Assembly: GCA_029891345.1 (NCBI GenBank)
Contig: CM057009.1
Location: 302,971,466 to 303,035,465 of the forward strand
Source of the DNA: Dryococelus australis
Lineage: Eukaryota; Arthropoda; Insecta; Phasmatodea; Phasmatidae
DNA: 64,000 nt
Reading direction: 5' to 3'
Position numbers and translations under genes: made by a program. Shown piece by piece: positions 4,400 through 34,125 of the stretch (the first letter of the stretch is position 1; each line of letters begins with the position of its first letter). The notes under the pieces were generated by a model. It did no database searches. It saw nothing but the letters and a program-made list of their open reading frames with translations, and was not told where the DNA came from.

Positions 4400-5310
4400 C
4401 TAAACAAGACGTTGGCTCCGTTTTGTATATGGTTTTGCCCCATTTTCAATTAAAATTTTACAAATTTCTTTAGATGTTTCCCACATAATTGCATTTTCAC
4501 CATATTTGTCCTCGATATTTAGGAACTCTTCAATTTTTTCCTCGTTACTATCCAGTGCCTTTTTTATATAGTCCAAAACACACAGCACTGCCGATTTATT
4601 TTTACTAGATACAGCTTCGTGCAATAGAGTACTGTTGTTATGTCCCCTAAGCAAGACATTGCCTCCATTTTCTATTAATAAAGCGACAACATTCACTAAA
4701 CCATATTTGACAGCGGATTTCAGTAATCAGTCAAGAAAACCGGGTCACCTAAACTTTCTCAACTAAATAACGCGCAATGTTTTCACGATCTTCATTAGCC
4801 GCTTTCACCAACAATTTCCAGTTTTGTAAAGTCCATCCATTGCCTCGTCCATTGTTTGCACCAAATACACAAGTACCGGCCAGTTTTCAAAATAATAATT
4901 GACATATATCAATACGGCTATACCCTCTGTATCTTTGGCCAAAACGTTGACACTTTCTTCTATTAGGAATTTTACAATTTCCAAATTCCCCGCCACTGCT
5001 GCTCGCTGAATTGGAAATTTACCACCAATATCTTTTCCTTTGAAATTTATCCTCATCTCCTTCAGGTGTATAAGTTTATCTAGCCAAGCGCGATAGGCAT
5101 CTAAGCTCACCAGCGACAGTTCCTTCTCTTCAAACAAGTCTTGTTTGTCACAGCTAGCTCTCATGGTGTCTTCACTGGCTCCCATAGTGTCTTCACTGGC
5201 TCTCATAGTGTCTTCACTGGCTCCCATAGTGTCTTCGCTGGCTCTAATGGTGTCTTTGCTGGCTCCCATGTTGTATTTGCTGGCTCTCATGGTGTCTTCA
5301 CTCTGTAGTT
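4400..5310 (-). pseudogene. Ankyrin-repeat protein, broken
   Basis: Minus-strand frames contain several ankyrin-type repeats: an N-terminal part with GGKFPIQRAAVAGNLEIVKF (near 5020-4960), and after a stop and frame change around 4700-4810 a second part with VNVVALLIENG and STLLHEAV (near 4690-4610). The carboxyl end includes IMWETSKEICKILIENG before a TAA near 4400. Upstream of the ankyrin part is a run of 7-residue repeats encoded by the 21 bp array. Ankyrin proteins are common in large DNA viruses and in arthropod genomes, so origin is not decided by sequence alone. Position at the left edge of the virus-like block and a decay pattern like its neighbours favour a viral origin. No start codon can be fixed. 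Confidence 0.6.
5157..5303 (-). repeat. Coding minisatellite, 7 x 21 bp
   Basis: Seven 21-base units alternate between two forms, so adjacent units encode GASEDTM and RASEDTM on the minus strand, giving a 42-base higher-order period. The units lie in the N-terminal part of the ankyrin gene, and none is interrupted by a stop. Confidence 0.8.
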
Positions 5311-5665
5311 TGCAGAGAGTGAGTGTGATCCCTTGGTACAATCGTCTCGTTTGTATACACTCACTATGCGAGGTTTATATGTTTTGTATTGGCTGATAAG
5401 GAATGTAAGTTTTTCATTTTTTTTATTGGCCTAGAAAGAATGAAAGTTTCTTCATATTGTATTGTTGGTTTAACCGATCTTGATAAATCGAATAAAATAT
5501 TTTTTAAATCGTTTTTCCCATACACGATTAATTTCAGATGCAAAAAAATGATTAGGATATATTAGCACGATCTTGTCAATTAAATGAGCATAGCGTAAAA
5601 AAAATTAAGCTTAGATTTATGCGAAATGTTAAAATGTAACGCCGTTTGTTCTGTTCCTGCAATCA

Positions 5666-5857
5666 TTACGCAATTTTCATTGCAAACATTTTTTTAAACT
5701 TTTTAACTTTCAAAACATTTTCATGTAAAAGACAGATGGACTCATGAGAGAGCAGTTTGACTCGCGCTCTCGACCTCAGTCGTCGGGTAATCGGAGTTAG
5801 TTTTTGTTTATGAAAGTTACCAAATAGCGCAGCGACCACTGATGAAACATATTTCAT
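5666..5857 (-). CDS. Small basic protein, unknown
   Basis: An uninterrupted 63-residue frame from an ATG at 5857. It is rich in Lys and Arg (RRLRSRARVK near the middle) with a short hydrophobic start. It lies immediately downstream of, and on the same strand as, the broken gene at 5868-6480. No family is recognised. The short length means chance is possible. Confidence 0.3.
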   Translation of the reverse strand: MKYVSSVVAALFGNFHKQKLTPITRRLRSRARVKLLSHESICLLHENVLKVKKFKKMFAMKIA

Positions 5858-5867
5858 TTTAATATTC

Positions 5868-6480: not shown

Positions 6481-6648
6481 AGAATTGTGGTGTTTTTACC
6501 AAATGCATATATCGCGTAGAATCACAATAATTAAATTAACTATGAGCTGACCCACTCCCACGTAGGGTTGTTTATTTCCTTTATACACAGTTCTTTTCTA
6601 TATATTGGCAAACTATAGTTAAAAACTCAAAATTACATAGAGCGATTG

Positions 6649-6843: not shown

Positions 6844-6861
6844 AGATATACGTACTTATTT

Positions 6862-7250: not shown

Positions 7251-7347
<97 letters not shown>

Positions 7348-8057: not shown

Positions 8058-9610
8058 CTATATTTCCATACGCCATTTGAAGCGGGAAACCATACAAGAG
8101 CTTACTGTTTTAGTAGTTTCACATGCGTGTTGAAAGGCAAATTTATGTATCATATAGAGATTTATCTTGAAGAAACATTTTGGTATCAGAAAGAGGTTGT
8201 TTTTTTCTTCGTCACACATGAGTATTCCGTCTCCAACATGTCCCAAATAACATAAAACTTCACGGATGCATACTCCATGACCATGAGTTAAACTGTTTTA
8301 GGGAACACCGGTGATTAGCGGCAAGTAGACGGGTTTGAGGTTTTCATTTTTTCCGCTGTCAATATTTTTTTATCGTTTAGAAAGAAAATCGGAGTGAACC
8401 GGGGACGATTCTTGAAAACACTCTGTTTGTCCATCTCAGTCACGTCAAGCCGGCAGCTAAATTCCTTTAGAATTGTTTTTATTTGAGCGAGAACAGCAAT
8501 CGACACAATTAAATTGAAATAGTGTGCTTCGATGTTTGTAAAGGCAAAGAAAAGAATACCAAACGTGAAGCCATTTCTATTTTCGGCTCAATCACAGTTG
8601 CCAACCACTCTACCGGATACTCGAAATGCAGAGCGAAACAACTCATGTTACGATTGTGTACGCCGAAATGACGTGTCAGTAGTTTCTTCCAATTCGGAGC
8701 GGTATTTAAAGTTGTCAGAAATTCCTGGTATGTCGAATCCATGTTCCTAAACTGTGTGGTTAGGAAAAAATTATCACCCCATAGTTCGTGAATAAGCGAC
8801 ATGTCGTTGGGCTTGTTTGTCATAAACAGCTTTAGCTGATACTGATCGCCACAAAATACAATCAAAAGTTTACTAAAAGTGTGCTTCACCATTTGGAAAA
8901 ATTCAACTAAAAATGTTGCTAGACATGCGCTGATCATACTGTATTCGTCAACAAACAAACGATGGGAGTATCGAAGGAAATTTAATAGTCGTTGCATTCC
9001 ACAAAAAACGAAGCCGTGTTGTATCCGATGTCGCAAAACTTGATCAACTCTTGTACTACTGCAGGTATTTTGTCAAGATCAGTCATTGGCAGGAGCTGCA
9101 CGAATTTTAAATATTCGTAGTAACTGAATTTACTCAACCGAATTAGGAGACTTGATAACGTCAAACCATTTGCTAGTTTCATCTGTGGACAAATATTTCG
9201 CAATAGAATGTGTTACGGGGTCGTGTGAAAACTCTGTTTTTTTTCCTTCGAGAAAAATATGCAATAATGTAGATTTCCCACTGCCGGCAGGACCATTTAA
9301 CGTGATGTATTTCAGTGTAGCCAACTCACCATAATTCTCGTCGAGCCATGTAAACAAAGAGGTTTTAACAAGTGCTGTTCCATAGAAAGCGTTCACGTTG
9401 ACAACGTAAAATCTGTCGTTTCCACAGCTTTCGTTTCGGAATTTGATAAATATACAAGAGTAATAACTTGTCCTCGAGATTTTCACGCGGAATTTGTTGC
9501 GCCCATAAACACATTTCATTACTACTCAACACATCTCTAAAACATAAACTCCAGTCTCGTTTAGCCGGAAGGCCATGCTTCACTCGTAATTTATACTTGA
9601 CGATTTTCAC
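8058..9610 (-). pseudogene. PIF1-type SF1 DNA helicase (nudivirus helicase-2-like), broken
   Basis: A DNA helicase gene spread over several minus-strand frames, about 500 residues in total. Motifs appear in the correct order. Motif I is GPAGSGKST (Walker A, near 9295-9270). Motif II is FVDEYSMIS (Walker B, near 8955-8930). Motif III is FCGDQYQL (near 8860-8838). A following TQFRN block sits near 8765. Further on are PLITGVP and THGHGV (near 8320-8280), which resemble the C-terminal part of PIF1-type enzymes, then a worn tail ending near 8058. Frame changes occur near 9500, 9170, 9030, 8510 and 8310, and one stop lies in the PLITGVP region. Nudiviruses and relatives encode a second helicase of this type besides the replicative one. 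A Helitron helicase is an alternative, but no Rep domain or Helitron end is visible nearby. Confidence 0.75.
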
Positions 9611-10212: not shown

Positions 10213-10967
10213 TTGGAAATAAATTATGCGACTTTTAAACGTTTGTACATTGGCCTATTGGCAAAGGACCCACACCGTATTATTTGTGCATTAAACCAAA
10301 ATTGCGGTGAATCATTTGATTTTTATGTAATGTGGATACAGTTTCTTTCGAGAATATTATCGACTTGGCGGAAATCGAATCAGAAAATATGTAAATATTT
10401 CTAAATCTTCCCGAATTCAAGTCACTTAAAGTTTTTACCACGTTTGAGATTCATTAATTCTGATATATTAGATAGATACAATAATTACATAATGGTTGCG
10501 AATCGAATTCGTTTAAAGACCTTGCCAAAATAATTAATAGTTTTGACAAAGTACTCGGTAGTAAAACTGGATTCGTGATATTTATGAAAAACTTACAACC
10601 TCACGAGACTGTATTTTTAACTAGGTTGATGCAGAATGTTGGCTCTAAATCGGGTAAATGTGTAAAACACACCTTTGAAGGATATATAGTTTTCGTAATG
10701 GACTGCACAGACGTAAATAATTCGCTTATTAAATTTAAAAACGTGGTCACTTTACAATTATTGATGTCCGCCATCAGCCAAATCGGTAGTGATTTTACCT
10801 ATGGGTTGGATGCTCAAACTATGGCGGTGGTCAAGTCGTTTATCAAGGGTCAAATTCGAACACCAAATTTCATAAAATTTGCTAACGAAGCGATCGTGGC
10901 GAAAACATATGAGTACATGGATAAATATATTCATTTACAACCCAATACTGAATTGGGAAAATTGTAA
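10213..10967 (+). pseudogene. Unrecognised virus-block gene, broken
   Basis: Two plus-strand open pieces (10213-10404 and 10575-10967) with a worn linker between them. The second piece is 130 residues without interruption and ends at a TAA at 10965-10967. It contains a mixed alpha-beta sequence with HTFEGYIVFVMDCTD and a Met-rich helix. A common origin of the two pieces is inferred from strand and spacing only. No known domain. The start of the second piece at 10575 is a non-ATG codon; the first ATG there is at 10584. Confidence 0.4.
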
Positions 10968-11049
10968 TCTTCCGTTCTCGATGAAGACAATGAATGGCTT
11001 GGGGGCACAAATCATTAATAATTGACAACACCTATCAAACAAGCACTTG

Positions 11050-12167
11050 TTGTGTTTCAAATGCACGTCTCAGTTTTATAAATCCGATACTAATTTGAAA
11101 AACCTTCCCATCGAGTATTTCGAGTTACAAAATAATTTCATTTTCGTCGTGCCGAATTACTAAAAGAATAGTGTAGCGGTGACACCGAATAACGATTTGG
11201 TCCAAGTAGTGATCGATAGTTCTACATCGCTAGCACTCAGCGCAGATCAGATTCCCGTTCTCGATAAGTTCAAAGATGAACACGTAATTGTTTATGTTTC
11301 ATACGGTAACAATTCGTACATTTATCACTCTCTTAGTTATACTATAGATTCTTATTTGAAATTCCAAAATTACAATCGAATATCAAATACAAAAACTATC
11401 ATGGTGAATGACGAAATTGAATATATGATTTGAATACTAATAAATACCAGTATTTTGCACTTATTCGATCCGCTTCAGAACTTTTAATAAGAGAGGCGAT
11501 GGAATTGATCTACAAGTACAACATTACCTTTATGTTTCAAGTCGAAAGCATTTCAGTATTTCTGATGGACAATCCAAGGATGAAAAAGTACATTTCAAAT
11601 GCGCAATATCAGCACGAAATATTTGTTCTTTTAAACACACATTATTTTATGAAATGCCATCCAAATAAAATGCCTGTTACTAAGCGACGAACGACGATCA
11701 AAGTTTCCAGTTTTCCTACCCGTCCTCATCGTCCTCCTCCTCCTCCTCCTCTTTCTCTACTACTTCCACTGATACATTCGTGAATGGTTTTTCCAAATTA
11801 TTTTCAAACAAGGCAAAAATTCTTGGATATGGATGTAAGTACGGCTAATGATATCTTTTCGTTCGAACCAAATAACTACGAGCAAAATAGTCAAGAGAGG
11901 GTGTTTGAATTCTCGGGGGAAGCTGTTTATTCATCAGTAGATTTGAATTGGCACATAGTAAACAACCACGAATTAAAGTTGGTTGATCGTAGGAATGCTC
12001 ATGTAATAACTATCAGTAAAATGCGAAATTCGTTAATCTCGAATGATGAGTTAATCAATTACTTTGCGACACTTACGCGTTCTCTAATTTTTATCTTTTT
12101 TCGTAATTTTTCCGAACAATTTGTTCGCGTTTTGGTGACGAATTTGGCCAGGTTTAGAAGCCAATGA
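11050..12167 (+). pseudogene. Unrecognised virus-block gene with an internal poly-Ser/Pro tract, broken
   Basis: Coding can be followed through a piece at 11080-11433 (one stop near 11161), a frame change at 11430, a second piece to 11783 and a third to 12167, in all over 300 residues. A (TCC)n run at 11720-11755 reads as Pro in the open frame and Ser in another, so repeat-length change is the likely cause of a frameshift there. The last piece contains GEAVYSSVDLNWH and ends RVLVTNLARF. No family is recognised. The good residual frame length suggests a large structural or replication gene, but there is no direct evidence of function. Confidence 0.4.
11717..11760. repeat. (TCC)n trinucleotide run
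   Basis: About eight TCC/CTC units inside the broken gene at 11050-12167. Confidence 0.8.
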
Positions 12168-12329
12168 ACCAAATGCACGCCTATTTTTGTTATGACAGCT
12201 AGGCTAAACGATAATATTCAGGAAAACCGACTAAATACACAACTTACTGGCGTTTCGTAAAAAATGCGCACCACATCCAGTAGTCCTATGTATCAATACA
12301 TTTGAATATGAGATCTAAACCCATCCCTG

Positions 12330-12848
12330 CTCTACAACAGAAACAAAGACGAAGCGAATGTCCAAACGATCAGGACGAATAAAACACAATGATTTGTCAT
12401 TAGTGAAAACCCTAAGAAATGTGTGAATGCCAATAACAATGATGATATTATGGTCACGGCATCTTTATACAAACCTTCGGTGAACGAACAATTTCCATCA
12501 AATGCCGATTATATGTATAGTGCGATTGATGGTCGACATTATGTCGTAAACCTCTCATTCGTTGTTGGTATTCCAGGGATTTGTGCCATTTACGAGGATC
12601 AAGATCCGAGAGAAATAACCATTGATAACATGCATCACAATCACGAGCACTATTTCCATCGAAGAGTACTATTCAAAGCAATTTTATTTTATTTGCACTA
12701 TTTGAGCAAGCACTTGGAAGCCATGCCTGATGGAAAACACACACTAGTGGTGAAGATTATCGATTCATTCACGGGAGATAGCGATATCGTTTTCAAAAAA
12801 TTTCTAGCCAATTTATTTAACGAAAGTAACGGTTTTCAAGTCGTTTAA
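12330..12848 (+). pseudogene. Unrecognised virus-block gene, 3' part intact
   Basis: The frame is open from 12393 to a TAA at 12846-12848 and can be traced upstream past one TGA at 12390 to about 12330. The product has GRHYVVNLSFVVG, a His-rich stretch (NMHHNHEHYFHR) and a C-terminal alpha-beta part. The first ATG in the open part is near 12450. It is arranged tail to tail with the minus-strand frame ending at 12854. The His cluster could bind metal, but no family is recognised. Confidence 0.45.
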
Positions 12849-12853
12849 AATAC

Positions 12854-13123
12854 TCAGAGGAACATCGCCATCATTTCAATCGCTTCCTCCGAAGTTCTAA
12901 ACGATCGTTTGCCATTCGAGGATGGTGCAAACACAAAAAATTTTATTCCACAAAAACTCTCTAGCACGTCCGAATAAGGCAGATTGGTTTTAGATACCGA
13001 AAACTTGAAATTTACTGCTGAATCGTACGCCGATAATTTACAATATATCGAAGAGAATTGCAAGTTGTTTAAGTTTAATACCTCAAATAGCCATAACAAA
13101 AACATTGGAGATGTGGCATACAT
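12854..13123 (-). CDS. 89-residue protein, unknown
   Basis: Intact frame from an ATG at 13123 to a stop at 12854, ending five bases from the stop of the plus-strand gene. The N-terminus is hydrophobic (MYATSPMFLLWLF) and may be a signal anchor; the rest is mixed. Tail-to-tail packing with almost no gap is typical of compact viral genomes. Not recognised. Confidence 0.4.
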   Translation of the reverse strand: MYATSPMFLLWLFEVLNLNNLQFSSIYCKLSAYDSAVNFKFSVSKTNLPYSDVLESFCGIKFFVFAPSSNGKRSFRTSEEAIEMMAMFL

Positions 13124-13148
13124 ATATTGTGGTGATGAACAAAGTTAG

Positions 13149-13703
13149 AACCAGTTTAATTTACAGCTAAATACAGATTTGGACAATGAGACACTAACGA
13201 TTATAATTTACTTTATACATGAAATTTCGTTATCTACCTTCAATACCATATTGATATTTATGAAAAGTTATCCAACTGCTTTCTATAACAAGGTTGTAAT
13301 TGCCAGCATTACGGATCTGAATAAATATAAATTAAACGCATATTCCGACGAAATCCATCATTGTGATAAAATGTTGAATTATTTATGCGTAACTAGTTCG
13401 ACTAAAATAATTAAAGATATTGATAGAGGAGATAGTTCAGATAGCATTTGGATAATAGGTTTGTATCGTATAAATGATAAAATTATTGTGTATGTGGATT
13501 CGACAAAGAACGTCATACTACCTACAAGTGAAAACGTTATTTCTATTTCGCATACAAAATTATGCGGTAGAGATAGGCTCGCATGTTTAAAAGGATATAC
13601 TATTTTAACCACGCAACATATAATCAAATATCCTTCGAATTTATATGCAACTAGTAATCTCGACGCATCCAACAGAGATGATCATGGCGGCGAAAACGAG
13701 TAA
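13149..13703 (+). CDS. ~184-residue protein, 5' end unclear
   Basis: One uninterrupted frame, open from 13149 to a TAA at 13701-13703. The piece beginning near 13179 lacks an ATG at its start, so the true start is lost or lies in another frame. The sequence is rich in Ile and beta-type segments (IWIIGLYRINDKIIVYVDST) and ends with a polar, acidic tail. This is one of the longest undamaged frames in the block. There is no recognisable domain. Confidence 0.5.
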   Translation, partial: NQFNLQLNTDLDNETLTIIIYFIHEISLSTFNTILIFMKSYPTAFYNKVVIASITDLNKYKLNAYSDEIHHCDKMLNYLCVTSSTKIIKDIDRGDSSDSIWIIGLYRINDKIIVYVDSTKNVILPTSENVISISHTKLCGRDRLACLKGYTILTTQHIIKYPSNLYATSNLDASNRDDHGGENE

Positions 13704-14762: not shown

Positions 14763-15391
14763 TAACCGTCAACATTATCGCAGAGTCGACCGAAATGACT
14801 TATAACAAAGTCAGAAATAAAAATGACGATGAATCAGTTACATTTTCGTCGATAGGCTGACGAAAAATGTATTATCGTGCAAAGAAGACAGATATTTCTT
14901 TACCTTCATCAAGAAAGAAAAAAAAAAAAAAAAAAAGTTACGTGTAAACACAGTTTGCGAGATTTTCAAATTAGTCAAGGATCGATCGCACAAAGTATTC
15001 ACCTGATCAACTCTATGACTTGTTACTTCTACCCACACGGGTCGAAGATTAACGGCTGATTAAGAAAGTATCTCAACTTAGATATTATAAATTATGATGA
15101 AAGGTAGACATTTGTATAAAAGTCGCCATTACTAATAATATAACTGATATAATAAAAAATATGGAAAAAAAAATGAAGTTATTCCCGAAATTAGTTTCGA
15201 AACCCTCAGCAAATTCAATCCTCCATCGAACATGCTTATTCGAGAGTTAATTTTAGATGTGAAGAGTGTAGAATCCAAAACTTGATCAACGTGGCATATC
15301 GTTGTGCCGATGCCTCGTGGACGGATGCGATCGCAGATATATTGGGCAAAGACGTGGATAATGTGGTTTTCGTCGGTGATGTATTCGACTA
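14763..15391 (+). pseudogene. Unrecognised virus-block gene, heavily broken
   Basis: Coding-like plus-strand pieces lie at 14763-14850, 14877-15059 (crossing an A18 homopolymer at 14918-14937), 15175-15285 and 15285-15391. The last two are linked by one frame change and contain ISFETLSKFNPPSN and DASWTDAIADILGKDV. The A-run is the most likely site of a frame slip. Relationship between the first and last pieces is uncertain. Confidence 0.3.
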
Positions 15392-15523
15392 AACGAAAAA
15401 CATATTTCGGTATTTGTATTACTTATTAATTTTTATCGGTGGGGTTACTATTTGGGGTTTTTTCCACCTACCTAATAAATTTTTCTCTCCTGTGGTAAAA
15501 GGGCAAAAGAAAGATAAGCGGAA

Positions 15524-16034
15524 GTGACGAGCGCGAGCAACGGGAAGCCCGTACTCAAGCTGTATGAGGTGTACGAAATCTTTTCGCAGATACATAATAT
15601 AAATGATCGGCATTTCAGATTACTCGCAAATATTTTGGCAACTTATCGTATAATTGATCACCCATTAAATTTCCTTACCGACAGTTCATTAACTGTCTAT
15701 TTGACCGTTTATTTCGAAAATCACTTTCCACGCGATTTGGAAAACAAAAAAATGATTTACAATTGATGCATAAAATCAATCTCGAGCGGTTGCAGTTGTG
15801 AACAAAAAAGTTAAAGATTCCACACTAAACAAACAGTTGGATCTTATCTAGCAAGCATATCGCTGGTACCGTAACTTTCTGCTATTTGTGCAACCCAAAT
15901 ATTCTTTCGAAATGAACTCTGAGTTGGATTCTCTGCTCGGAGGAATCGACGATTTCAACGTGCGGTTTGCACACATAATGCCAAATGGCAAACCGATACT
16001 TTCGCTCTTCACAAAGTTGGATCGCGGGATATAA
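15524..16034 (+). pseudogene. Unrecognised virus-block gene, broken
   Basis: An open piece at 15524-15766 (80 residues, LKLYEVYEIFSQIHNINDRH) is followed by a frame change near 15755 and two in-frame stops near 15800 and 15850. Coding then continues with AYRWYRNFLLFVQPKYSFEM and ends at a TAA at 16032-16034. About 165 residues altogether, mostly helical. Not recognised. Confidence 0.4.
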
Positions 16035-16084
16035 AATCCCATTAATGTGAATTGATTGATCAATCTCGAACTGAACACGCCAGA

Positions 16085-16552
16085 CTCTCAATACATTGTT
16101 GATATCTCACACTCAATTCTTGTTGAATAGTTTGCATATTCCCATGTTTTTGTCCGTGACTTCGTTCCGAAGCTGTTTCATCAACATTTCCTCGCGTTAA
16201 AAAACTCGTGCAGTTTGTGGCCAAAGTAATTGTTATTAATCTCGTCGAATCTCTGAAGGTAAACACTAATCAATTTCAATTTTAATTTTGTCCAGCAATC
16301 GACAATGTTGACGTAATTGACGTATGTGTGAGATGTGTCCAATATCTGCTTGCTTCGAATAAAGTTGTCTGTCGCAATGCACAACTTATCAAGTCGCGAT
16401 TTGTCATCGACACAAGTTTTCGAAAGATCAGCGCATTTCGACTTTACCCGATTCAAGTACTCTTCTTCGAAATTTTTCGAAAAGATTTGGCCTATTTTTT
16501 TAAATGTGTTCCTATTAATAAAGAGTATGTCTGATCTACTCAATATTAGCAA
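16085..16552 (-). pseudogene. Unrecognised helical protein, one frameshift
   Basis: A minus-strand frame from 16552 (start codon region MLILSRSDILFINRN) stays open to 16181. A single frame change near 16190 leads to a further piece ending near 16085 (NVDETASERSHGQKH). The product of about 150 residues is predicted mostly helical with regular Cys and Lys. It overlaps head to head with the plus-strand frame starting at 16527. Unknown. Confidence 0.4.
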
Positions 16553-18142: not shown

Positions 18143-18186
18143 GATTGGTTGTTGATTCCCCCTACCACTTTATTCAACAACCAATC
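18143..18186. repeat. Perfect 13 bp inverted repeat (hairpin)
   Basis: GATTGGTTGTTGA and TCAACAACCAATC are separated by 18 bases, just beyond the retroelement edge. It may be the end of a small element or a structured viral or host site. Confidence 0.7.
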
Positions 18187-18383
18187 AGATTACACCATTT
18201 CATATCCCCATTTCATTTATAGAAAAGTATGTTTGGTTCCGAGAAAAATAAACTTACCTGTGTGTGTCTGGTTATAATTTGTCTTTTTTTTTTTTTTTTC
18301 CAGATATCGCTCCCGTATAGGCAAACTGAAAGATGTGGAAGGGAAGAGAAACTGAAACTGTGGAATCTGATTTGTGTTAATTC

Positions 18384-18559
18384 GTCAATGGCTGGGTGTG
18401 AATGCGTCAATGGCTTGGTGTGAGTGTGTCGATGGCTGGGTGTGAGTGTGTCGATGGCTGGGTGTGAATGCGTTGATGGCTTGGTGTGAATATATCGATG
18501 GTTGGGTGTGAATGTGTCGATGGCTGGGTGTAAATGCATCGATGACTTGGTGTATTGCA
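18384..18559. repeat. Minisatellite, 8 x 22 bp
   Basis: Eight units of the form GTCGATGGCTGGGTGTGAATGT with a few substitutions each. The minus strand reads as a His/Thr/Pro repeat peptide, but no start or promoter supports expression. Confidence 0.85.
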
Positions 18560-18645
18560 TTGACAACATTGTATGCTGCATTGACACCTTTGTATGCTGC
18601 ATTGACACCTTTGTATGCTGCATTAACAGCTTTGTATGCTGCATT
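18558..18645. repeat. Minisatellite, 4 x 21 bp
   Basis: Four units of CATTGACACCTTTGTATGCTG directly follow the 22 bp array. The last unit is truncated. Confidence 0.85.
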
Positions 18646-18754
18646 CTATTTGGGTTATGAAGTCAGATAAAGATAATCCTTTTGTGCAACCTTTAACCAT
18701 CGCATATAGGTTACATTCATTTTATACGATTAATATCGGAATAATCCTATGTCG

Positions 18755-19150
18755 GTTCGTCGATTTGGGTTATGATGTCACACTCGTTCGTCGACATAGA
18801 TTATGAAGTCACATTCGTTCGTCGATTTAGGTTATGTCATCACATGGAAGTTGCACTTATGCAACCTTAAACATCACACTGTCACCTTAGTTCGTCGACT
18901 TAGATTATGATGTCACATGTAATGCAGCCCTCCAACTGGATGACATCACACTCACTCGTAGAGTTAGGTTACGACACCACACTCATTCATAGGATTAATC
19001 TGATGTTCGTCGAGTTAGGTTATGACATCACATTCGATCGACATCTTAGTGCATTGTGAAGTCATCCTCATTCGTCGACTTATGTTATGACGTCACACTC
19101 GTTCATAGGATTAATCCCATGTTCGTCGACTTAGGTTATGATGTTACACA
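18755..19150. repeat. Degenerate repeat array with CRE-like sites; possible viral homologous region (hr)
   Basis: About eight copies of a ~31 bp motif, GTTCGTCGACTTAGGTTATGA followed by TGTCACACTC, with a GTCGAC palindrome and a TGAYGTCA-type site in most copies. Three copies of an ATAGGATTAATC phrase are interspersed (near 18730, 18990, 19107). The array lies directly upstream of the MSV199 gene and its TATA box. Baculovirus and nimavirus hr regions are repeat arrays with palindromes and CRE-like sites that act as enhancers and origins. The resemblance here is in architecture only. Confidence 0.4.
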
Positions 19151-20734: not shown

Positions 20735-21184
20735 ATGGATAAACAACCGATCCAAGCATTACCTTACAATGGTCCTCTTCCTTTTACGAGCAGATTCATC
20801 CAGAAGCAAGAACTCCAAATTATTCAACTCTGGGATCAGCTGCTTGTGATTTATACGCTATCGCAGATATCACATTAGCCCCGGGATAACGACATGTACT
20901 ACCTCTGGGCCTTCGATTACTGTATCCCGCTGGTAATTCCTCGTACATCGACTGGAAAACAAGGACTTCAACTTTACGCCGAAGTGTGCGATCCCGATTA
21001 TTGCGAAGAACTACAAATGTGCGTCTAGAATGTTGCTCCGAATGAATTGACCGTTAACAAAGGAGACTGCATCGCGCAATTGTTAATTCTTCCATATACA
21101 CGACCTGTTATTTTCGAAAATTGTGATTTAGCCTCGACTCCGTGCGAATGCGGTGAACGACGTTTTGGATCTACTGGACGGTAA
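20735..21184 (+). pseudogene. dut: dUTPase (deoxyuridine triphosphatase), broken
   Basis: The enzyme hydrolyses dUTP to dUMP and limits uracil in DNA; many large DNA viruses carry it. The ATG at 20735 begins about 20 codons that then shift frame near 20790. Motif I appears as STLGSAACDLYA (near 20823-20858) and continues ITLAPG, with an in-frame TAA, to HVLPLG. Motif IV appears as NKGDCIAQLLI (near 21055-21090) and motif V as RRFGSTGR immediately before the TAA at 21182-21184. All are in the standard order for the trimeric family. There are two or more frame changes and stops. A TTAAG motif lies three bases before the ATG. The 3' end, including motif V, is duplicated at about 22037. Confidence 0.8.
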
Positions 21185-24009: not shown

Positions 24010-25189
24010 AATTTAACAATTGGCAAGACCTTTTTGTTGAACAAAGAACTGATTACGATAAAATTAAAGATATCGAGCCAAAACATGCCAATTTTATTAC
24101 ATCTCTAACGATGCTAGGCTACATTTGGTCAGAGAAACTTTTTGTGCCAGTGAAAATAATTCATCCGCTCTTTAAACGATAATATTATAGTCTACCCGAA
24201 AACATTGTTCAACAACTGATAAAAATGTATTCCTTTGCAATCATTGTATGATAAGAATGTCGTTCAATTCGAATCCATTGATTTTTTTTCAAGACTCACG
24301 AAAGAGGACGCGAACGATGCATGAGATCCCATTTAAAGTACGTAAATTTCATGAAAAATGGTGGTACTTTGGCAGATTTCCAAGATTTGATTTCATATTT
24401 CATTTTCGGATACTTAACGAAAACTCGAAAACTCGAGCATACTGCACCGCTGTTTGCAACACGTTGGTGAGTGAACTGAAATATCTCGATCCCTCCTACC
24501 AAAACCTTTTAAATCTCCATGATCACTTCGGCTTATCAACGAGCGGCTAAACTGAACCTCTACGATGCACAGATCATGTATTTGAGCGACGGAAGCCCTA
24601 TCACCAATGAAGGAAAAATAATAACTATCTACAAATCGACCAAAGTCCAAAAGTTTTGCCTTGGAATAACACAAAAAAAAATCACAACTATGCGGAAAAT
24701 GCTCTTACCGAGTTTATAAATGACTTTAGCGCACCCTACTCATCGGAAATGGAATTGATGCTTTTAATTTATTTGCTGTACAAAGTGGGAAGACAAAAAA
24801 AACGAAATGAGTCAAGTTAACGAACTGATTGAAAGTGAAAAAACTGAAGTTAAAACAAAAATAATGTGTATTCCTTCTCAATTTATGCATACCCCAAATG
24901 CGTTTGTGAATCATCAACCATTGCGTTCTATTTACAAAACTTGAATAGACTCTTTGTCACCCGATACGAAAAACTCAGTTTAATTTACATTACTTTGTGC
25001 AAAAAAATAACAGGAGTGAGGCCTGATCGGGGAGTGTTGTTTCATGCCTGGCGAAATAATTTTTCAGTGGATGCAAGTGCAGTAGATCCTAGATTATTTC
25101 AAAATGCACTTGTTCATGGTAAAAAAATATCCACATTGAATTACGTAAATAAACAGATTTTGAACGACACCAACCTTCAACAAATTTGA
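24010..25189 (+). pseudogene. Tyrosine recombinase, VLF-1/integrase-like, broken
   Basis: Site-specific recombinases of this type include baculovirus VLF-1, a core protein needed for very late expression and genome packaging, and the nudivirus integrase. The catalytic set is readable in order: Arg in YQRAAKLNLYDAQIM (near 24540-24580), Lys in IITIYKSTKV (near 24625), H-x-x-R as FHAWRNNF (25040-25063), His in LVHGKKIST and Tyr in LNYV (25105-25147). The last four sit in one open frame (24866-25189) with the His-to-Tyr spacing usual for the family. The N-terminal half (24010-24560) is spread over frames with several stops. The gene ends at a TGA at 25187-25189. A mobile-element recombinase is an alternative, but the neighbours favour a viral gene. 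Confidence 0.65.
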
Positions 25190-26046: not shown

Positions 26047-26178
26047 AAAGTGTGTTTTTTTGTATGTAATTTTGTATGTTTTTTGGATATAAAGTCTAAT
26101 CGTGGCCCTAAATAAAGAAAAAATAAACAAATAATTCGGTAATATTTTGGATTTTCAAAAAAAATTCTACCTTAAACG

Positions 26179-27317
26179 ATGATTCCTATTCCACTGAAAT
26201 ATATAATAAACTTTTGCATCATACGCAAGATGGAGAAATATTCAACAGTCGTTACATACCAAAATCGACAAAAATATTATATATTGAATGTAAAAAACCA
26301 CAGGAAATGTACGTGATTTTAAAAGAGGTAATCAATCAACACTCTTTTATAGATTTTGTTATTTTTCCCTTGCGTAAAATTATAGACCAAGTGGTTCTCG
26401 ACGATCGGGATAAACGCCCTTTCATAATAAACCGGTTTATTATGGCAGTGACTGAATTTCTAGACAATTTCCCAAGGACAGTAACCTTGATTCGACGAAC
26501 ATTGACAAACCTTCGTCGTGGAGGAGGAGATTTCGACTTAATTGACGACATTTCGGAATAATTCGCCCATTTATGAGTTTATCGTTTATCACTTTACAAA
26601 ATCCATTCTCGAAGTGTTTATACAAAGTTTAAATAATATTGACGAAACTTTTGACAATGCGGAACAAATTGAGATTTTTTGGACGGCATGGTCAATCCCA
26701 TTGATTATTTCGAAGTTTCGTAAAATACTGCTACGGTCGGGGAGGTCGAGGGTGACGAAACTAGTAACGAGTTTCACGCGGAAAACGACCAGGTGTTGGA
26801 TCTGCGCGATCCGAACACGGCCGCGATTGAAGCAAATGATGGCCATAATGGTAAAGATGATGGTGATTACGATAGCAAAGATGAATGCAAGTTACACAAC
26901 ATAGATAATGAATGGGAGAATTTGAACAAAGTCACAGTATCGGCCATTGTTCACCGCGAAGATCATGTAGATGAGAACGAGCCGCTCGAAATTAGCGAAT
27001 TACATGGACCTGAAACTGAAGTCATTCTTTCTGACGAACCGGTTATTAAACAGACTGATTTAAAATTTCCGCGATAACGAAACAGTAATTGAACTAATTG
27101 AACTTGTAAATACTGCTGACGAATCCACAACAGTACCAGTGGATCTGAATTCCTATAGAATTGAACCCGAAACCACATTCTAGGGAATTTAAAAGCCAAC
27201 AACCGCGCTGAAATCGAGCTTTTCGAAAAAGGCGGAAATAATAATAGCCGAAAAATACATAGGGATAAATTTCCGCTATATTTAGTCTGTTTGACGGAAA
27301 ACGACTTGTATGAGTGA
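26179..27317 (+). pseudogene. Unrecognised acidic virus-block gene, broken
   Basis: Coding can be followed from an ATG at 26179 through 26214-26561 (ending FDLIDDISE), 26570-26730 (PIYEFIVYHFTKSIL), 26760-27077 (strongly acidic, Asp/Glu/His/Asn-rich) and a last piece with NNRAEIELFEKGG to a TGA at 27315-27317. There are four or five frame changes. It lies directly upstream of the PIF-3-like gene on the same strand. The acidic linker and total length near 370 residues would suit a virion or regulatory protein, but there is no recognised domain. Confidence 0.4.
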
Positions 27318-27337: not shown

Positions 27338-27974
27338 ATGAAAAAATTTATTTTAATTTGTTGTGTTTGTATTTCCGTTGCCATTGCTACGCTTTGCATA
27401 CAGGCAACACATTGGATGATTCCCGAAAACAATTTTTTAAATAATGGCATGTTTCACAAGACGGTCGATTGCCTATCACTACCTGTTTCGCTGTATCGAT
27501 TCGTCAGATTGCCAAGTTTTATGTGATCTATCAAAGTTTAATTTCGATTGCGATGAAAATAAATGCACTCCACGAATTAAAGCAACGCCCACCTCAGTAA
27601 CAACAACAATAACCCAACAATCACCCACAGCCTCATCCCATTGCGCAAGCATTGTTCCGTTAGATTCCAAACACGGAATAGTCAGAGTGTTGGAAAGCAC
27701 CGATCCTTTGGAAATTAAATGGGTGTGTATCTCGACTTACCCACTCGTGTGGAACGATGATGGGATTGAGACTTTGTACCCCTGCAAGGATGGAATCGTC
27801 ACGAGCGATCTGACAACGTCCAGTTTTAAACTAAACGATTGTAAATGCAGGGCTGATATGATATGGGATGTTTTCGAATTTCAGCCACACGTGCCGAAAT
27901 TTTCCCCATCAACCAATGTTAATTTCCCCACAAACTTTCATGAAATTCAAAATATCAATAATAATAATTCATAA
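27338..27974 (+). pseudogene. PIF-3-like per os infectivity factor candidate, one frameshift
   Basis: PIF-3 is an envelope protein conserved across baculoviruses, nudiviruses and nimaviruses; it is part of the complex that acts in primary infection. The ATG at 27338 starts with a hydrophobic segment at residues 3-22 (ILICCVCISVAIATLC), an uncleaved anchor like that of PIF-3. A frame change near 27440-27520 leads to a part with a tight Cys pattern, CIDSSDCQVLC, then FDCDENKC, a Thr/Pro linker, and a C-terminal domain with GIVRVLE, WVC, YPC and a final NDCKC. Length of about 200 residues, N-terminal anchor and order of Cys clusters fit PIF-3. The identification is by pattern, not alignment. A 30-residue Asn/Pro tail follows. 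Confidence 0.55.
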
Positions 27975-28548: not shown

Positions 28549-28692
28549 GCTGAAAAAATATATAGATTTTTTATATTTTTTTCCGAGTGCGAGAAAAAGA
28601 AGGGGGCTAGGGCAATATATATGCAAATACATTTCAAACATAGATCAGAATGCGAGAGCTCGCGATAAACAGTGCATCTGTAAAGTCACTGT

Positions 28693-29472
28693 GTGATCTT
28701 TCCAACGGGAACTAAAAAAATTGATAAGATATTGTATTTAAAAAATCATTATTTCTTGCACAACTACTACAAAATTGTTTATCTTTTGGATAGAAAAAAT
28801 TATATACGGTTTAAAGCGAAGACCGTTGCAGGGTTATTGGGATACGAAAACAACAGGAACGCTATTACGGATAATGTGAGAGAGATATATAGAAGAACTT
28901 TTAACGAACTGCCAACAAATGCAGCTTCAGTTGCAATCGTCAACGATTATCCCCCACGCTATCTTCATCAACGAACCGGGTATTTGCAGACTAATTATGT
29001 ATTCCAAAATGCCCTTTGCGGAAAATTTTCGAGTTTTTACTTACGAACACATTCTCCAGTGGGTTCGCGAGAGTAAACAGCGCATGTTTCAGAATCACGT
29101 CGCGTATTTCAGAAAACAACTCCGAGAAAGAACGACGAGACAATCATTGACTCGGACTGCAAAAGAGGCTCTCGTCGCCAATACCACCAAAGAAAGTACA
29201 GAAAAAATAAGCAACAATTTGAAACCAAATTTCTTGGCGTTGAAATTGAATGAAGACATTTTGATGTTCCGTATTATGTAATTTGTGTACATAAAATAAA
29301 TTTGAAGAGGAAACTCAACTTGCTTCGAAAGAAACATCCCAACTGCGAGGAATTACTGCATTTAGAGTATCATTCACCATCTCGGAACATGTACACCTGT
29401 GTCCAGAACACATTGAGCGCTCACTTGAAATATTTTAAGAATTACTTTATGTTAAAAAAATATAGAATTTAG
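28693..29472 (+). pseudogene. bro: BRO family protein (BRO-N domain), broken
   Basis: BRO proteins bind DNA and are widespread in baculoviruses, entomopoxviruses, iridoviruses and nudiviruses. The N-terminal domain reads FKAKTVAGLLGYENNRNAI (near 28813-28869), the hallmark motif. After a frame change near 28930-28985 it continues with AIFINEPGICRLIMYSKMPF (near 28955-29014) and FRVFTYEHILQWVRESK. A frame change near 29290 leads to a C-terminal part with NLLRKKHPN and PSRNMYTCVQNTL, ending at a TAG at 29470-29472. There are at least two frameshifts. It lies on the same strand as the metalloprotease and PIF-3-like genes, with short gaps. Confidence 0.8.
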
Positions 29473-29823: not shown

Positions 29824-29886
<63 letters not shown>

Positions 29887-29902
29887 ATGGGTGTGTGTGC
29901 GT
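29824..29902. repeat. (TA)n/(TG)n microsatellite
   Basis: About 25 TA units followed by TGTGTGTGTGTATGGGTGTG. It lies between the plus-strand BRO gene and minus-strand genes. Confidence 0.95.
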
Positions 29903-29912
29903 GTTTTTGAAA

Positions 29913-30284
29913 TTATTTATTTAGTAAACGTTCGATAATATTGGCCATAATGCAAACTGCGAGCGCGTACTTGTATTTATCATGGACGTTTGATGAAAAT
30001 TTACCCTGTTCTGTGTAAACATTACACAACAATTTTAATTCTTGTAGATAACACTCGAATCTCAGCGAATCCAAAATGTTTTCTTGAATCTCTTCAAAAA
30101 CTCTGTCATTTTGGTCGGGATATAGGTTGAGTTTCAAAAAGTTTAAATATTTTCCATAAACACCTGGTCTCGTATTTTGAGCTTCGAGAAATAAATTACC
30201 TGCGAAAATCCTAAACTCCTTTTTCTCTGGATAACCGAGTTAGGTGATTAAAGTATCGGGAATTAAGTTGTGATTAAATGCCAT
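29913..30284 (-). pseudogene. ~123-residue protein, unknown, single internal stop
   Basis: ATG at 30284 (MAFNHNLIPDTLIT) with one in-frame TAG near 30240 and a slip near 30138, otherwise continuous to a TAA at 29913. Predicted mostly helical (FLEAQNTRPGVYGKYLNFLK). The low damage makes it one of the better-preserved reading frames. It follows the minus-strand gene at 30311-30638 with a 26-base gap. Not recognised. Confidence 0.5.
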
Positions 30285-30310
30285 TGGTCCATCTTACCAT
30301 TTGGCATAAT

Positions 30311-30638
30311 TTACAAACCCTGCAAACCCCGATAAATACTCGAGCCTAGAATAGAAATAGGTCCGGTGGCGGAAGAAGACGAAGTCGACATCTTATCCAC
30401 AAAATGATCGTTGAGAATGTGATTTTCCTCATGTTCGTCGCCGATTTTGGGAACATTTTGATTATCGGCTGCCGCCATCACCTGATCATCACCAGTCATT
30501 CTAGGCATTGCCATTTCGAGAGATGTAGACAACTCATCGCTGTGGTAACTATCAAAGTCGCTGAGCGAAATTCTACGACGTAATCGTCTATGTTCTTTGT
30601 ATTCCTCTCTGAGTTTTTGTTTGATTGATTTAACCATA
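30311..30638 (-). CDS. 108-residue hydrophilic protein, unknown
   Basis: Intact frame from an ATG at 30638 (MVKSIKQKLREEYKEHRRLR) to a TAA at 30311; the frame is open further upstream to 30694 without another ATG. A basic N-terminal helix is followed by a Ser/Asp-rich, probably disordered tail. Not recognised. 30700-31215 beyond it is AT-rich with small remnants only. Confidence 0.45.
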
Positions 30639-31220
30639 TGATTGTGTTTAAATGGTTGGCGTCGGTGGTTTTGGAACTTTGGATGTACGGTCAATATTAA
30701 GGCAGATAGGATCCATCGAAAACTGGATATTTAAACAGTCTTATGAACAACTTGCGGAAACCACACGAGATTAAGCAACAACCTTGTGGAATGTGATTTG
30801 TTGATAGAAGAACTCAAAAATCAAGCGTCGCTAGTATAAGCATCCGCCTGAACCCATTACGACATTATCAAAATCGATAATCCTGCATTTGTATATTACT
30901 TTATTGCTTGGTTAATAACCAGCATGTCTCAAATGATATATATATATCTGATCTACTTTATAATGTTTTTATAAAATACTGTATATATGTAATATATATA
31001 CTTATAAAATATTAATATTTTATAAGTTTATTAATATACTAACTCCTTTCCTTCTGTTCTGGGAGGAAGAGTGATGTTTGCACGTTCAGCTCAAGTTGTA
31101 TCATATCATCGTAAATTTCGTAGTGATTTTCATGTAAATATTGAAAAAAATGTCCATCTGCATAGGGATTATGAAACCCAATATGCAACAATCATGAGAA
31201 GATGACAAACGCATTACATA

Positions 31221-32909
31221 CTAATCCATCTTCGAACTCGATAAGCTAGATGAAAGATTCAACCAGTCCTTCATCTCCAAACTTAAAGTTTTGCACACAA
31301 ATACGAAATTATCCTCATTGAGCGGCTCGTTTCCCTCGCCCATTGCGGACATTGAACTTGACAATGGCGGTATTCAAAAACTGGACTTCGGACGATCTGG
31401 CTGTGGCAACACAAAGAAGCTGTATCCACAAATTTTTTTCAGTTTGTTTGGCATTATCCTCAGCAATGAGTTGTTTTCGCTTTACATGCAAAAATTTCTC
31501 GATCGTTGCATAAAAAGAATTCATAGACTGCGAAGTGTTGAATGGTGTGGTTGTTATTTCATCGTCATCGTCAATTTCCGTACTATAATCATGTTCATGG
31601 TCCGAGTCTCCTTCTCTACCGCCAACCCCACTTTTGTTTCTTATGCCATTCTTTACTAAATCACAATACTGAAGAATGTTTTCGAGTCGAAAATAAAGTT
31701 AGCCAAACTGAGTAGTTTCAGCATGTGTTGTAAAAAATGGAATGTATAAATGGAGCAACTCGTTTCAGGTTCACCGTGTATTTCTGAGTTAAAATATGCA
31801 GCAAGTATACATACATCTTGAAGGCAATCGTATCATTTTGGTACCGGTAATGAGCTTTAAATTTTCTACGAGTGTTGGAGGCCATTTGCAGTTTAGAGTC
31901 AAAAAATTGAATGTAACCACATTTTCATCGATGTAGTCGAGAGGTTTGAAATCAGGTTCGATGAATGCATACTGCTTAGCCACTATGTTTGAAAATATTG
32001 GGCAGAGTAACATCACCATCAACTTGTTGTATTGCAAAACCGCGATAAGAAATGTGGCAATTTATCATAGATGTCCAAACACAGGTCTTGAATGTGAGGG
32101 AGATGGACCAGGGTGATTATCGGATTTGGAATGTCGTAATGGTGCTTGATAGCCACCAGACATGCCAGTGAAGGCGAAGCTGTTTCAAATACATTTAGTA
32201 ATTGGTTAAACCCATACCCATTGCGAAGGACTTGGTGACCTAGATGGACGAGAACAGCCTCATACTCTTGTATTTTGAGACTAAAGGACAACTCGCTTTC
32301 GCAAACGATCGAAAACTTTCCATTGTCAAACAACACCAAGTTGCTACGTTGCCTCGTCAATAAAATGTCAGAAAAGAATAAATAATTCGCCTTACAAGCT
32401 GTCACTGACGACAAATTATTATTTTTTATTCCCAGACGAATCCCCATTATCACCACGCTCTCGACCGTTGGATTCGCCAAAGATAACGCATTTGTACACG
32501 TTGAACAGGTTTGTCCAGTCGAGAGGTCCTTTACAAAAAGAACAAAGCAAAAAGTAAAGAACGTCGGTCTTGTAGAATCCCGTGTACAAGTGATTGATTA
32601 CATTTTCGTGGGTTCACCAACCGCTCAATATGAACTTTGCGTACCAGTTCAGGTTGAAAAGCTTGAACACACATCGAATCAATTGTATTAAATTTTTACT
32701 GTCGATGTAGCGAACAAGCAATGACAACATGCTTGTCACATAACCGCGATTCAACATCTCCGATAAAACAAAGACGAACTAGTCGTAATTTCCTTTAAAC
32801 GTATCCGATGATGCAGGTCGTCATAACCATTTTCATAAAGGATATTCTTCACCTCTGTTGTATTCACATTCATAGCTATATTCTTCGTCTCTACTTCGTT
32901 TCGAACCAT
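31221..32909 (-). pseudogene. Large unrecognised virus-block gene (~560 residues), broken
   Basis: Coding can be followed on the minus strand from an ATG at 32909 (MVRNEVETKNIAMNVNTTEV) to a TAG at 31221, with about six frame changes (near 32815, 32480, 32040, 31805, 31660 and 31310) and two internal stops (near 32790 and 32620). The middle piece (32480-32019) is 153 residues open and contains DILLTRQRSNLVLFDNGKF. The C-terminal third has an acidic linker (EIDDDDEITTT) and a helical end. That the pieces form one gene is inferred from their contiguity. No domain recognised, though size and preservation suggest a structural or transcription component. Confidence 0.45.
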
Positions 32910-33079
32910 TTTTGGAATATTTATTTATTTTTCTGATCTTGTCATCGCCGTTGTTGCTTACCCAAAACCCACTGGTTCCACCATTCATTTACCCCAACAA
33001 TGATGTTTATGCTTTTAATTACGATATTATTTGCTTTGCAATAACATAGGTAGAATATGAATGTCATGTAAAATAAGTT

Positions 33080-34125
33080 TTATTCTTCAGCCAATAAACC
33101 ATCGATGAGTGCATGCATGAAATTTTCTTTGTAATGATCAAAGTCAATATCGGGTAGTCATATCGCCTCCTCGAAACGATCAATCAGATACAATTGATTT
33201 TTACTAAATGGGTAAAATTCACGATCGTAAAAAGGAACCTGATGTTCGGCACTTCCCAACACATACTCGGAGAAGATGATGTATGAAATGTCCAGTTTTG
33301 CCGCATTAAAGAAAGTATTCTCCAACTGGTTTGTCTCAAACTGAAAATCTATCTCGATTGTGCTGACTACAATTCGTACACCTCGGTAATTACACTCGCA
33401 TCGTAACTTCCACTTAGACTTTCAATTTTGTGAGTAATTTCTCCATCAACACACACAATGAAATATCCAGTGATATATTCAAATCCAAACCTGTACTCGG
33501 TGGATCCAATGGATGACTTTACCCAACCTTCCTCGCAATAACCACCGACGTCGTTTCCCATTTGCACCATATGGCCATTTGCCACAATCGATTTCTCGTC
33601 ATTTCGAATTTGTCTGATTGCCTGATCGATGAACGTGCATCGTCTGACGTATTCATCCATCCGATCGAGTTTTAAAGAAAAAACTTCTCGCGATGAACTC
33701 CAAGATATGGAAACTACGATGACTTCACCTTCCTTGAAGGGATCGTAAAAGGGAACAAAATACACTAGTTCGTCCTTTTAGTGTCCATATATTGATGGGA
33801 CTTAGTTTTTTGAAATGATCATACATGCTCAGCCATTTGGGAACGTAATCTTGGACGGTGGGCAAGGAACACTCTGCTGGATTATCCAACACAAACTTGA
33901 GTGCCAACCCCTCGTTCGATTGCGAGTAGAGGTGAGAAAGATGGCCAAAAAATCCATGCGTACTGACAAAATCCATCACTATGGGTAGAACTAGGTGAAA
34001 GTTGGCCTTTTCGGGCCGATGTGTCACCAGCTGATATCCCTTGGCGTAAAATGGAAACGTGGCTGCAGTAACATTCTCAAGAAACTCAATCACACGATCA
34101 CGCCAAACGAGGTTCTCTACTTACG
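33080..34125 (-). pseudogene. Unrecognised virus-block gene (~335 residues), broken
   Basis: Three contiguous minus-strand pieces: 34125-33770 (IEFLENVTAATFPFYAKGYQ), 33765-33367 (VPFYDPFKEGEVIVVSISW, then GFEYITGYFIVCVDGEITHK) and 33366-33080 (a piece ending LIDGLLAEE with a TAA at 33080). One stop lies near 33155. The middle piece has alternating beta strands ending in a Phe-x-Val-x-Val-x-Gly pattern that recalls galectin-like sandwiches; this is a faint similarity and should not be taken as a family assignment. It is the right-hand end of the recognisable virus-like block. Confidence 0.45.

What the first reader, a model, noticed from the sequence alone, without database searches (positions are those of the whole stretch)
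4400..34125. Decayed endogenous copy of an unfamiliar Naldaviricetes-like dsDNA virus
Seen: seven recognisable genes (PIF1-type helicase, MSV199/DUF3627, dUTPase, VLF-1-like recombinase, PIF-3-like, matrixin, BRO) plus about twenty compact, intronless, unrecognised genes on both strands within 30 kb, nearly all broken. Known: this set is shared among baculoviruses, nudiviruses, nimaviruses and related filamentous viruses. Inferred: a chromosomal copy of a virus not matching any I can name, because most neighbours are unrecognisable and the gene order is unfamiliar to me.
Basis: partly seen in the sequence, partly recalled or inferred. Interest (0 to 1): 0.92.

Follow-up and report, generated by a model that had tools for sequence, protein, structure and literature searches.

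The report
Fossil baculovirus-like virus, amplified genome-wide
This stretch of a 3.4-billion-base animal genome is a broken, rearranged copy of a large DNA virus related to baculoviruses, and its PIF-3 gene recurs in at least 150 other or same-genome places, which points to a virus that once spread through the chromosomes and then decayed.

Summary
The finding holds and is larger than described. The block carries PIF-3 (E 6e-16) beside matrixin, a Bro-N/DUF3627 gene, and weaker MSV199, dUTPase and PIF1-like helicase pieces, most of them frame-broken. The VLF-1-like recombinase rests on a motif seen by eye. The window lies in a 327-Mb contig of a 3.4-Gb assembly with 150 scored PIF-3 matches and 39 PIF-2 matches, 11 within 60 kb of a PIF-3. 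Compared PIF-3 copies are about 86% identical (49 rows); 47 of them give a star-like tree and dN/dS near 0.5: read as a burst by a working virus-like element, then decay. A dispersed copy matches about 19.0-30.7 kb, and 31.1-35.0 kb inverted; the right junction is at 35,010/35,011. The left part (4.4-18.1 kb) matched no fetched locus. An intact relative of this PIF-3 (59% identical) is only 18-25% identical to its best matches among viral PIF-3s. Multi-copy endogenous naldaviruses are known in crustaceans and ants; the lineage seems new. Host unnamed. Most genome searches did not complete.

The parts
4400..5374 (-). Ankyrin-repeat gene in two pieces (4400-4726, 4805-5374); virus or host not settled
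   Evidence: Pfam Ank_2 E 7.3e-8 and Ank E 0.001; no match in any fetched locus
8509..9525 (-). PIF1/Dda-type SF1 helicase pieces in different frames (8509-9072, 9130-9525)
   Evidence: AAA_19 E 0.0097; PDB 8bnv E 2.3e-5; PHROG Dda-like E 7.2e-5 and 4e-4
10485..13703 (+). Run of unrecognised intronless frames
   Evidence: ORF excess over shuffles; no firm Pfam match, best PF17620 E 0.0034 under cut-off
15132..16552 (-). Unrecognised frames
   Evidence: no Pfam match for 15132-15422 and 16181-16552
18143..19149 (.). Minisatellite-like repeats, in part also present in a dispersed copy
   Evidence: tandem repeats; matches in L058
19200..19529 (+). MSV199 domain piece
   Evidence: Pfam E 0.0024, under cut-off; 0 of 63 loci hit
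20743..21181 (+). dUTPase pieces in more than one frame
   Evidence: 21029-21181 Pfam E 5.7e-4, under cut-off; 20743-20886 by eye, no Pfam match; homologous stop-bearing piece in L058
21117..22704 (+). Tandem duplication of about 0.8 kb, 69% identical
24513..25189 (+). Putative tyrosine recombinase (VLF-1/integrase-like), broken; unconfirmed
   Evidence: HxxR...H...Y-like pattern by eye; no profile hit; homologous stop-bearing piece in L058
26127..27077 (+). Gene of unknown function upstream of PIF-3, also upstream of it in other copies
   Evidence: 10 of 63 loci hit by the 26127-26561 piece; read in L001-L008
27338..27974 (+). PIF-3: N-terminal part (27338-27523) and the rest (27441-27974) lie in different frames
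   Evidence: PF05006 E 6.1e-16; N-terminal part recognised by eye against P0001; 150 scored matches in the genome
27968..28545 (+). Matrixin (M10 metalloprotease) in two frames
   Evidence: PF00413 E 5.3e-8 and 1.1e-4; matched in 44 of 63 loci
28684..29469 (+). BRO gene: Bro-N in two frames, then DUF3627
29913..30730 (-). Unrecognised frames, largely shared with a dispersed copy
   Evidence: L059 86% identical over 29898-30662
31092..35010 (-). Viral segment inverted relative to a dispersed copy; unrecognised frames 31315-34120
   Evidence: L059 and L060 alignments; L051
35010..35011 (.). Right junction of viral with other DNA, to within a base or two
   Evidence: Homology of two other copies with the window stops here while those two go on matching each other
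35011..35443 (+). Dispersed repeat starting at the junction
   Evidence: second copy at 46869-47149; part of it also near PIF-3 copy L031

Best explanation
A large dsDNA virus of class Naldaviricetes, of a lineage not placed in a named family, entered the germ line of this animal. Shown: its PIF-3 gene has at least 150 matches over 16 contigs, PIF-2 is linked to it at several of them, sister copies share gene neighbours, most compared copies are about equally distant from one another, and 26 of 47 compared PIF-3 stretches carry an in-frame stop. Inferred: the copies were laid down over a short time while the element still worked, either by repeated re-integration of circulating virus or by transposon-like copying, perhaps with a recombinase of its own; afterwards each copy decayed. 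The window is one such copy, with a near sister 205 kb away, a segment at 31.1-35.0 kb inverted relative to a dispersed copy, and a break at 35,010.
For: PIF-3 domain. Own genome: 150 scored matches of 269 candidates, every listed row over cut-off, 0 of 14 control genomes. PIF-2: 39 matches of 104 candidates, 0 of 14 controls; 11 of 39 within 60 kb of a listed PIF-3 against a mean of 0.34 in 500 random placements (highest 5), 10 of the 11 on the same strand and 8-33 kb upstream. Median pairwise identity 85.6%, middle half 84.0-87.4% (49 rows). Tree of 47: 92.4% of length in terminal branches, 4 of 44 nodes with support 0.9 or more. Pairwise dN/dS median 0.505 over 1081 non-independent pairs against 0.84 (5-95%: 0.56-1.44) in a neutral simulation. 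A dispersed copy 71 Mb away matches about 19.0-30.7 kb in order at 72-87%. Five PIF-2 places compared are 79-84% identical.
Against: No match of 4.4-18.1 kb to any fetched locus by blastn, nor of 4.4-16.8 kb by tblastx, so the left part could be another insertion. No PIF-2 in the window. MSV199 piece absent from all 63 loci. The recombinase has no profile support and the one sister piece has lost most of the pattern. L004 and L007 depart from the common gene order after PIF-3. Host duplication can also scatter copies: WIN and L028 are near sisters, and two PIF-3 matches sit head to head on C8. C17 holds 37 of 150 against 14.3 expected by length. dN/dS was not corrected for CpG decay, and its range overlaps the lower end of the neutral one. 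28 of 39 PIF-2 matches have no listed PIF-3 within 60 kb.
Confidence: 0.85

Rival explanations
1. One ancient insertion was copied by the host itself, through segmental duplication and transposon-driven shuffling, without further activity of the virus.
For: Near duplicates exist: L028 is 205 kb from the window and 92.7% identical; a head-to-head pair lies on C8; copies are rearranged.
Against: Star-like tree, spread over 16 contigs, dN/dS near 0.5 between copies. Host flanks were not compared systematically.
Confidence: 0.2
2. The block is a composite: 19-35 kb is the amplified naldavirus and 4.4-18 kb is a second viral insertion or host sequence.
For: No homology of 4.4-18.1 kb to any of the 63 fetched loci; a GC-rich stretch lies at 16-18 kb; two lineages of PIF-3 exist in this genome (L037).
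Against: Similar ORF density; a second helicase is usual in several naldaviruses (passage of PMC12548425; that it is of PIF1 type is recalled). Only about 215 kb of the genome was fetched, so absence is weak.
Confidence: 0.3
3. The virus is a member of a known family or group (hytrosavirus, AmFV-like, nudivirus or nimavirus) and only looks unfamiliar.
For: Best matches of its relative P0001 are PIF-3 of two baculoviruses and a hytrosavirus and a 279-aa unnamed protein whose length equals AmFV_90. PIF-3, Bro-N and Peptidase_M10 together are all in AmFV (Table 1 of PMC4517127).
Against: 18-25% identity to all four, none clearly nearest, from a low-confidence model. Decay is not the cause of the distance, since the protein searched was an intact relative.
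Confidence: 0.25
4. Assembly error: a viral contig joined to host sequence.
For: None found.
Against: 327-Mb contig and 150 scored PIF-3 matches over 16 contigs; junction at 35,010 next to a dispersed repeat.
Confidence: 0.02

Closest known systems
Endogenous nimaviruses of crustaceans (PMC10871703: abstract and section 5 read)
   Same: Naldaviricetes members in arthropod chromosomes, estimated at 22 to 477 copies per haploid genome, interpreted there as giant transposable elements with their own integrases
   Different: Here no close match to a named family, and no telomere-repeat array or rRNA in the window; the left end and target site are not known
AmFV/LGDV-like endogenous elements of ants (PMC12548425: section 12 and passages; PMC10259472: passages)
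   Same: Many paralogous copies of pif genes in ant genomes (1,378 loci in Harpegnathos saltator; 51 pif-3 copies in a passage of PMC10259472 on ants), in one case with stops and transposons inside
   Different: Those have a named viral relative; none was found here
Apis mellifera filamentous virus (PMC4517127: section 12 and passages)
   Same: PIF-3, several Bro-N genes and two Peptidase_M10 genes in one genome
   Different: GC 50.8% against about 35% here; no MSV199 or dUTPase in its Table 1; no close sequence match found
Hytrosaviruses and nudiviruses (HzNV-2: passages of PMC3280521)
   Same: PIF genes; HzNV-2 has a matrix metalloprotease and a dUTPase; second-best PIF-3 match of P0001 is a Glossina hytrosavirus
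   Different: 25% identity only; best matches of the HzNV-2 metalloprotease and dUTPase were insect proteins in that paper's table

Membership tests
Naldaviricetes | PIF-3 homologue | tested here: met
   PF05006 E 6.1e-16; top three named Foldseek matches of its relative P0001 are PIF-3
Naldaviricetes | Further PIF genes in the same element | tested here: met
   PIF-2 8-33 kb upstream of PIF-3 in 10 of 11 linked cases, of 39 PIF-2 matches; not in the window itself
Naldaviricetes | PIF-0/p74, PIF-1, PIF-5, DNA polymerase, P33 | not tested
   PIF-1 search of the genome unanswered, the others not searched there; none recognised in the window pieces scanned
Lefavirales | lef-4, lef-5, lef-8, lef-9, ac81 | tested here: inconclusive
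   Not recognised among window pieces scanned; the rest of the element was not scanned
AmFV-like / LGDV-like viruses | Closest PIF-3 relationship | tested here: inconclusive
Nimaviridae | Insertion into telomere repeats, rDNA or AT microsatellite with a known integrase type | tested here: inconclusive
   No five-base tandem array in the window, no rRNA; right junction lies at a dispersed repeat; left end not mapped
Endogenous viral element | Virus genes joined to host chromosome and degraded | tested here: met
Tyrosine recombinase (VLF-1/integrase) | Profile match with catalytic R, HxxR, H, Y | tested here: not met
   No recombinase profile or PDB match; pattern by eye only; mostly lost in the one sister piece

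The most novel reading that the evidence does not exclude
A family-level new branch of Naldaviricetes lived for a time as a giant self-spreading chromosomal element in an animal (probably an insect), reaching hundreds of copies in one burst with an excess on one chromosome, while relatives with an intact PIF-3 occur in two other unnamed public datasets.
Probability: 0.4. Interest if true: 0.82.

Novelty: new member of a known kind. Interest (0 to 1): 0.66.

Why it matters
In the papers seen here, endogenous naldaviruses are reported from crustaceans and hymenopterans, some of them at high copy number. A further lineage with at least 150 datable copies, with no named close relative found, would widen the class, give a fossil record for a virus without a named living member, and allow a test of whether such viruses spread in genomes by re-infection or as giant transposons.

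Tried and rejected
IMG/VR scans with PIF-3, helicase and recombinase pieces found no relative (4 of 8 scans used). PIF-3 has no PDB relative by sequence. Three protein-database searches with PIF-3 found, between them, only P0001 and P0002. A structure model of the window's PIF-3 piece was useless (pLDDT 31.5); that of P0001 was poor (37.3), so its Foldseek matches (TM-scores 0.13-0.18 for the first four) count as a sequence-aided hint, credible only because the three named ones at the top are all PIF-3. That 16.8-19.1 kb is wholly a host insertion was dropped for 18.1-19.1 kb, because some of those repeats recur in another copy. The first thought that 35,010 is a natural end of the virus was dropped: two other copies go on beyond it. 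PIF-2 was sought in the window and not found. Stretches beside the near sister copy (L062, L063) and two stretches by the C5 copy (L049, L050) matched nothing in the window. Papers: searches (open-licence PMC only; titles and starts of abstracts seen) listed nothing that I recognised as this element.

Rows dropped: L026 (same PIF-3 stretch as the one taken from L025) and L037 (divergent second lineage) are left out of the 47-row counts; statistics include them. The second PIF-3 copy inside L025 was not used. Of the 150 listed PIF-3 places 48 were taken (L001-L048), mostly the best-scoring ones, so the sample leans to well-kept copies. In one search contigs of unseen length were given 200 Mb in the random placement.
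Full report
WHAT IS THERE. Stop-to-stop frames of 100 aa or more number 15 against 2.0 (sd 1.6) in shuffles for 4.4-16.7 kb and 33 against 4.4 (sd 2.0) for 19.15-34.1 kb. The flank 42-59.5 kb has 3 against 2.2; the whole right flank 36-64 kb, which holds transposon pieces, has 18 against 3.9 (sd 2.2), 1-4.4 kb has 9 against 2.3, and 16.7-19.15 kb has 5 against 3.2. Pfam scans of 30 pieces, of 78 pieces as a set and of named pieces recognise PIF-3 (E 6.1e-16), Bro-N (1.4e-5 and 7e-7), DUF3627 (2.2e-7), matrixin (5.3e-8) and ankyrin (7.3e-8), and, under the curated cut-offs, dUTPase (5.7e-4), MSV199 (0.0024) and AAA_19 (0.0097). The helicase is supported by PDB 8bnv (E 2.3e-5) and a Dda-like phage helicase family (E 7.2e-5). 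The other families listed are weak, 0.005 or more. The recombinase is a reading by eye (HxxR...H...Y, recalled), without profile support.

BROKEN GENES. PIF-3 starts in one frame (27338-27523) and goes on in another (27441-27974), judged by eye against the intact protein P0001. The BRO gene hits Bro-N in two overlapping frames and DUF3627 further on. Matrixin, dUTPase and helicase are each spread over more than one frame. I describe these breaks and mended none.

IN THE GENOME. The window is C17:302,971,466-303,035,465 of an unnamed assembly of 3,415,067,245 bases in 646 contigs. PF05006 gave 150 scored matches out of 269 candidates, every listed row over the cut-off, and none in 14 control genomes; the tool calls such counts lower bounds. 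PF04631 (PIF-2) gave 39 matches out of 104 candidates, none in controls. Eleven of 39 PIF-2 matches lie within 60 kb of a listed PIF-3 match (mean 0.34 in 500 random placements, highest 5); ten of the eleven are on the same strand 8-33 kb upstream; the other 28 have no listed PIF-3 that near. Five PIF-2 places fetched are 79-84% identical to one another. In L001-L008 the gene upstream of PIF-3 and the matrixin downstream recur, with BRO in several; L004 and L007 depart from this order after PIF-3. Over all 63 loci, 44 match the matrixin piece, 9 the BRO piece and 10 the upstream gene piece; 48 of the 63 were fetched for PIF-3 and most end within about 1-1.5 kb of it.

HISTORY OF THE COPIES. 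Over 49 rows the median pairwise identity of the PIF-3 stretch is 85.6%, middle half 84.0-87.4%; the window's nearest is L028, 92.7%, 205 kb away and in the other orientation. One place, L037, is only 25% identical in protein and is a second PIF-3 lineage. Without L026 and L037, 47 rows give a tree with 92.4% of its length in terminal branches, median terminal branch 0.0706, and 4 of 44 nodes with support of 0.9 or more. Pairwise dN/dS is 0.505 (median of 1081 pairs, which are not independent) against 0.84 (5-95%: 0.56-1.44) in a neutral simulation, and 0.82 for WIN-L028; 21 of 47 have no in-frame stop in the matched stretch. This fits spread while the gene was still used, then decay, and for WIN-L028 a later local duplication. 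With insect neutral rates of 3-8e-9 per site per year (recalled), 0.07 would mean roughly 9-24 million years; this is a guess, since host and rate are not known. C17 holds 37 of the 150 listed matches against 14.3 by length.

EDGES AND REARRANGEMENT. A copy near C17:231.65 Mb matches the window at 19.0-19.25, 19.94-21.94, 22.96-25.83 and 26.23-30.66 kb in order (72-87%; small gaps, and 380 bases of that copy not fetched), without the MSV199 piece; then it has 3.2 kb that the window lacks, then matches 35.01 down to 31.09 kb in reverse. L051 and L028, near the sister copy, are consistent with that same arrangement, although the DNA between them was not fetched. So the window's 31.1-35.0 kb is inverted relative to the dispersed copy and probably to its sister. 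Both L051 and L059 go on past window position 35,010 and match each other (89.7% over the first 195 bases), while the window turns into a dispersed repeat with a second copy at 46.9 kb. The right junction of viral with other DNA is therefore 35,010/35,011, to within a base or two. About 500 bases stand at window position 34,146 in both other copies and not in the window. The left junction is not mapped. The part 4.4-18.1 kb matched none of the fetched loci by blastn, nor did 4.4-16.8 kb by tblastx against all 63.

WHAT VIRUS. P0001 (59% to the window, 208 aa) and P0002 (50%, 211 aa; 56% to P0001) are intact PIF-3 proteins on contigs of about 1.2 kb from unnamed public data. A weak model of P0001 gave as best Foldseek matches Culex nigripalpus NPV PIF-3 (E 5.4e-6, 22%), Glossina hytrosavirus PIF-3 (1.6e-4, 25%), Neodiprion sertifer NPV PIF-3 (2.4e-4, 18%) and an unnamed 279-aa protein (4.3e-4, 21%); AmFV_90, the AmFV PIF-3, has 279 aa (PMC4517127 Table 1), so it may be that. 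No named family stands out. No PIF-1, p74, polymerase or lef gene was recognised in the window pieces scanned.

COMPARISON. Hundreds of copies of a naldavirus in one genome are known: endogenous nimaviruses at an estimated 22 to 477 copies (PMC10871703 section 5), and 1,378 LGDV-like loci in an ant (PMC12548425 section 12). What seems new is the lineage. What spread like a giant transposon need not be one: the recombinase is unconfirmed and no target site was found.

HOST. Not identified. The contig sizes seen, 12 of the first 17 (C1 403 Mb falling to C14 99 Mb, then C17 327 Mb), look like sixteen autosomes and a large X listed last, which from memory fits the American cockroach Periplaneta; the one test sent did not complete.

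Noticed in passing
63638-63913 (-): Double jelly-roll domain (PF21738, E 2.6e-15): remnant of an unrelated element, perhaps with a capsid gene, at the right edge of the window.
   Followed up: partly
L037 (C3:214552867-214555226): A second PIF-3 gene only 25% identical to the amplified family: a second endogenous naldavirus lineage in the same genome.
   Followed up: partly
C8:88878967-88880291 (L025): Two PIF-3 matches head to head, under 0.4 kb apart, each 76.6% identical to the window's piece; not compared with each other.
   Followed up: no
39530-40784 (-): Ty3-type reverse transcriptase and RNase H pieces in several frames, with an exact 20-base tandem duplication at 40456-40496.
   Followed up: no
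47774-48885: Foldback element: inverted repeat around a palindromic core.
   Followed up: no
contig C17 of the assembly: 37 of the 150 listed PIF-3 matches lie on C17, 2.6 times its share by length; C17 may be the X chromosome (a guess).
   Followed up: partly
window 34146: About 500 bases present in two other copies at this point are absent here.
   Followed up: no
L063 5621-6986 and L050: A stretch shared by the neighbourhoods of two PIF-3 copies, 84-86% identical, but absent from the window: perhaps a further part of the element.
   Followed up: no
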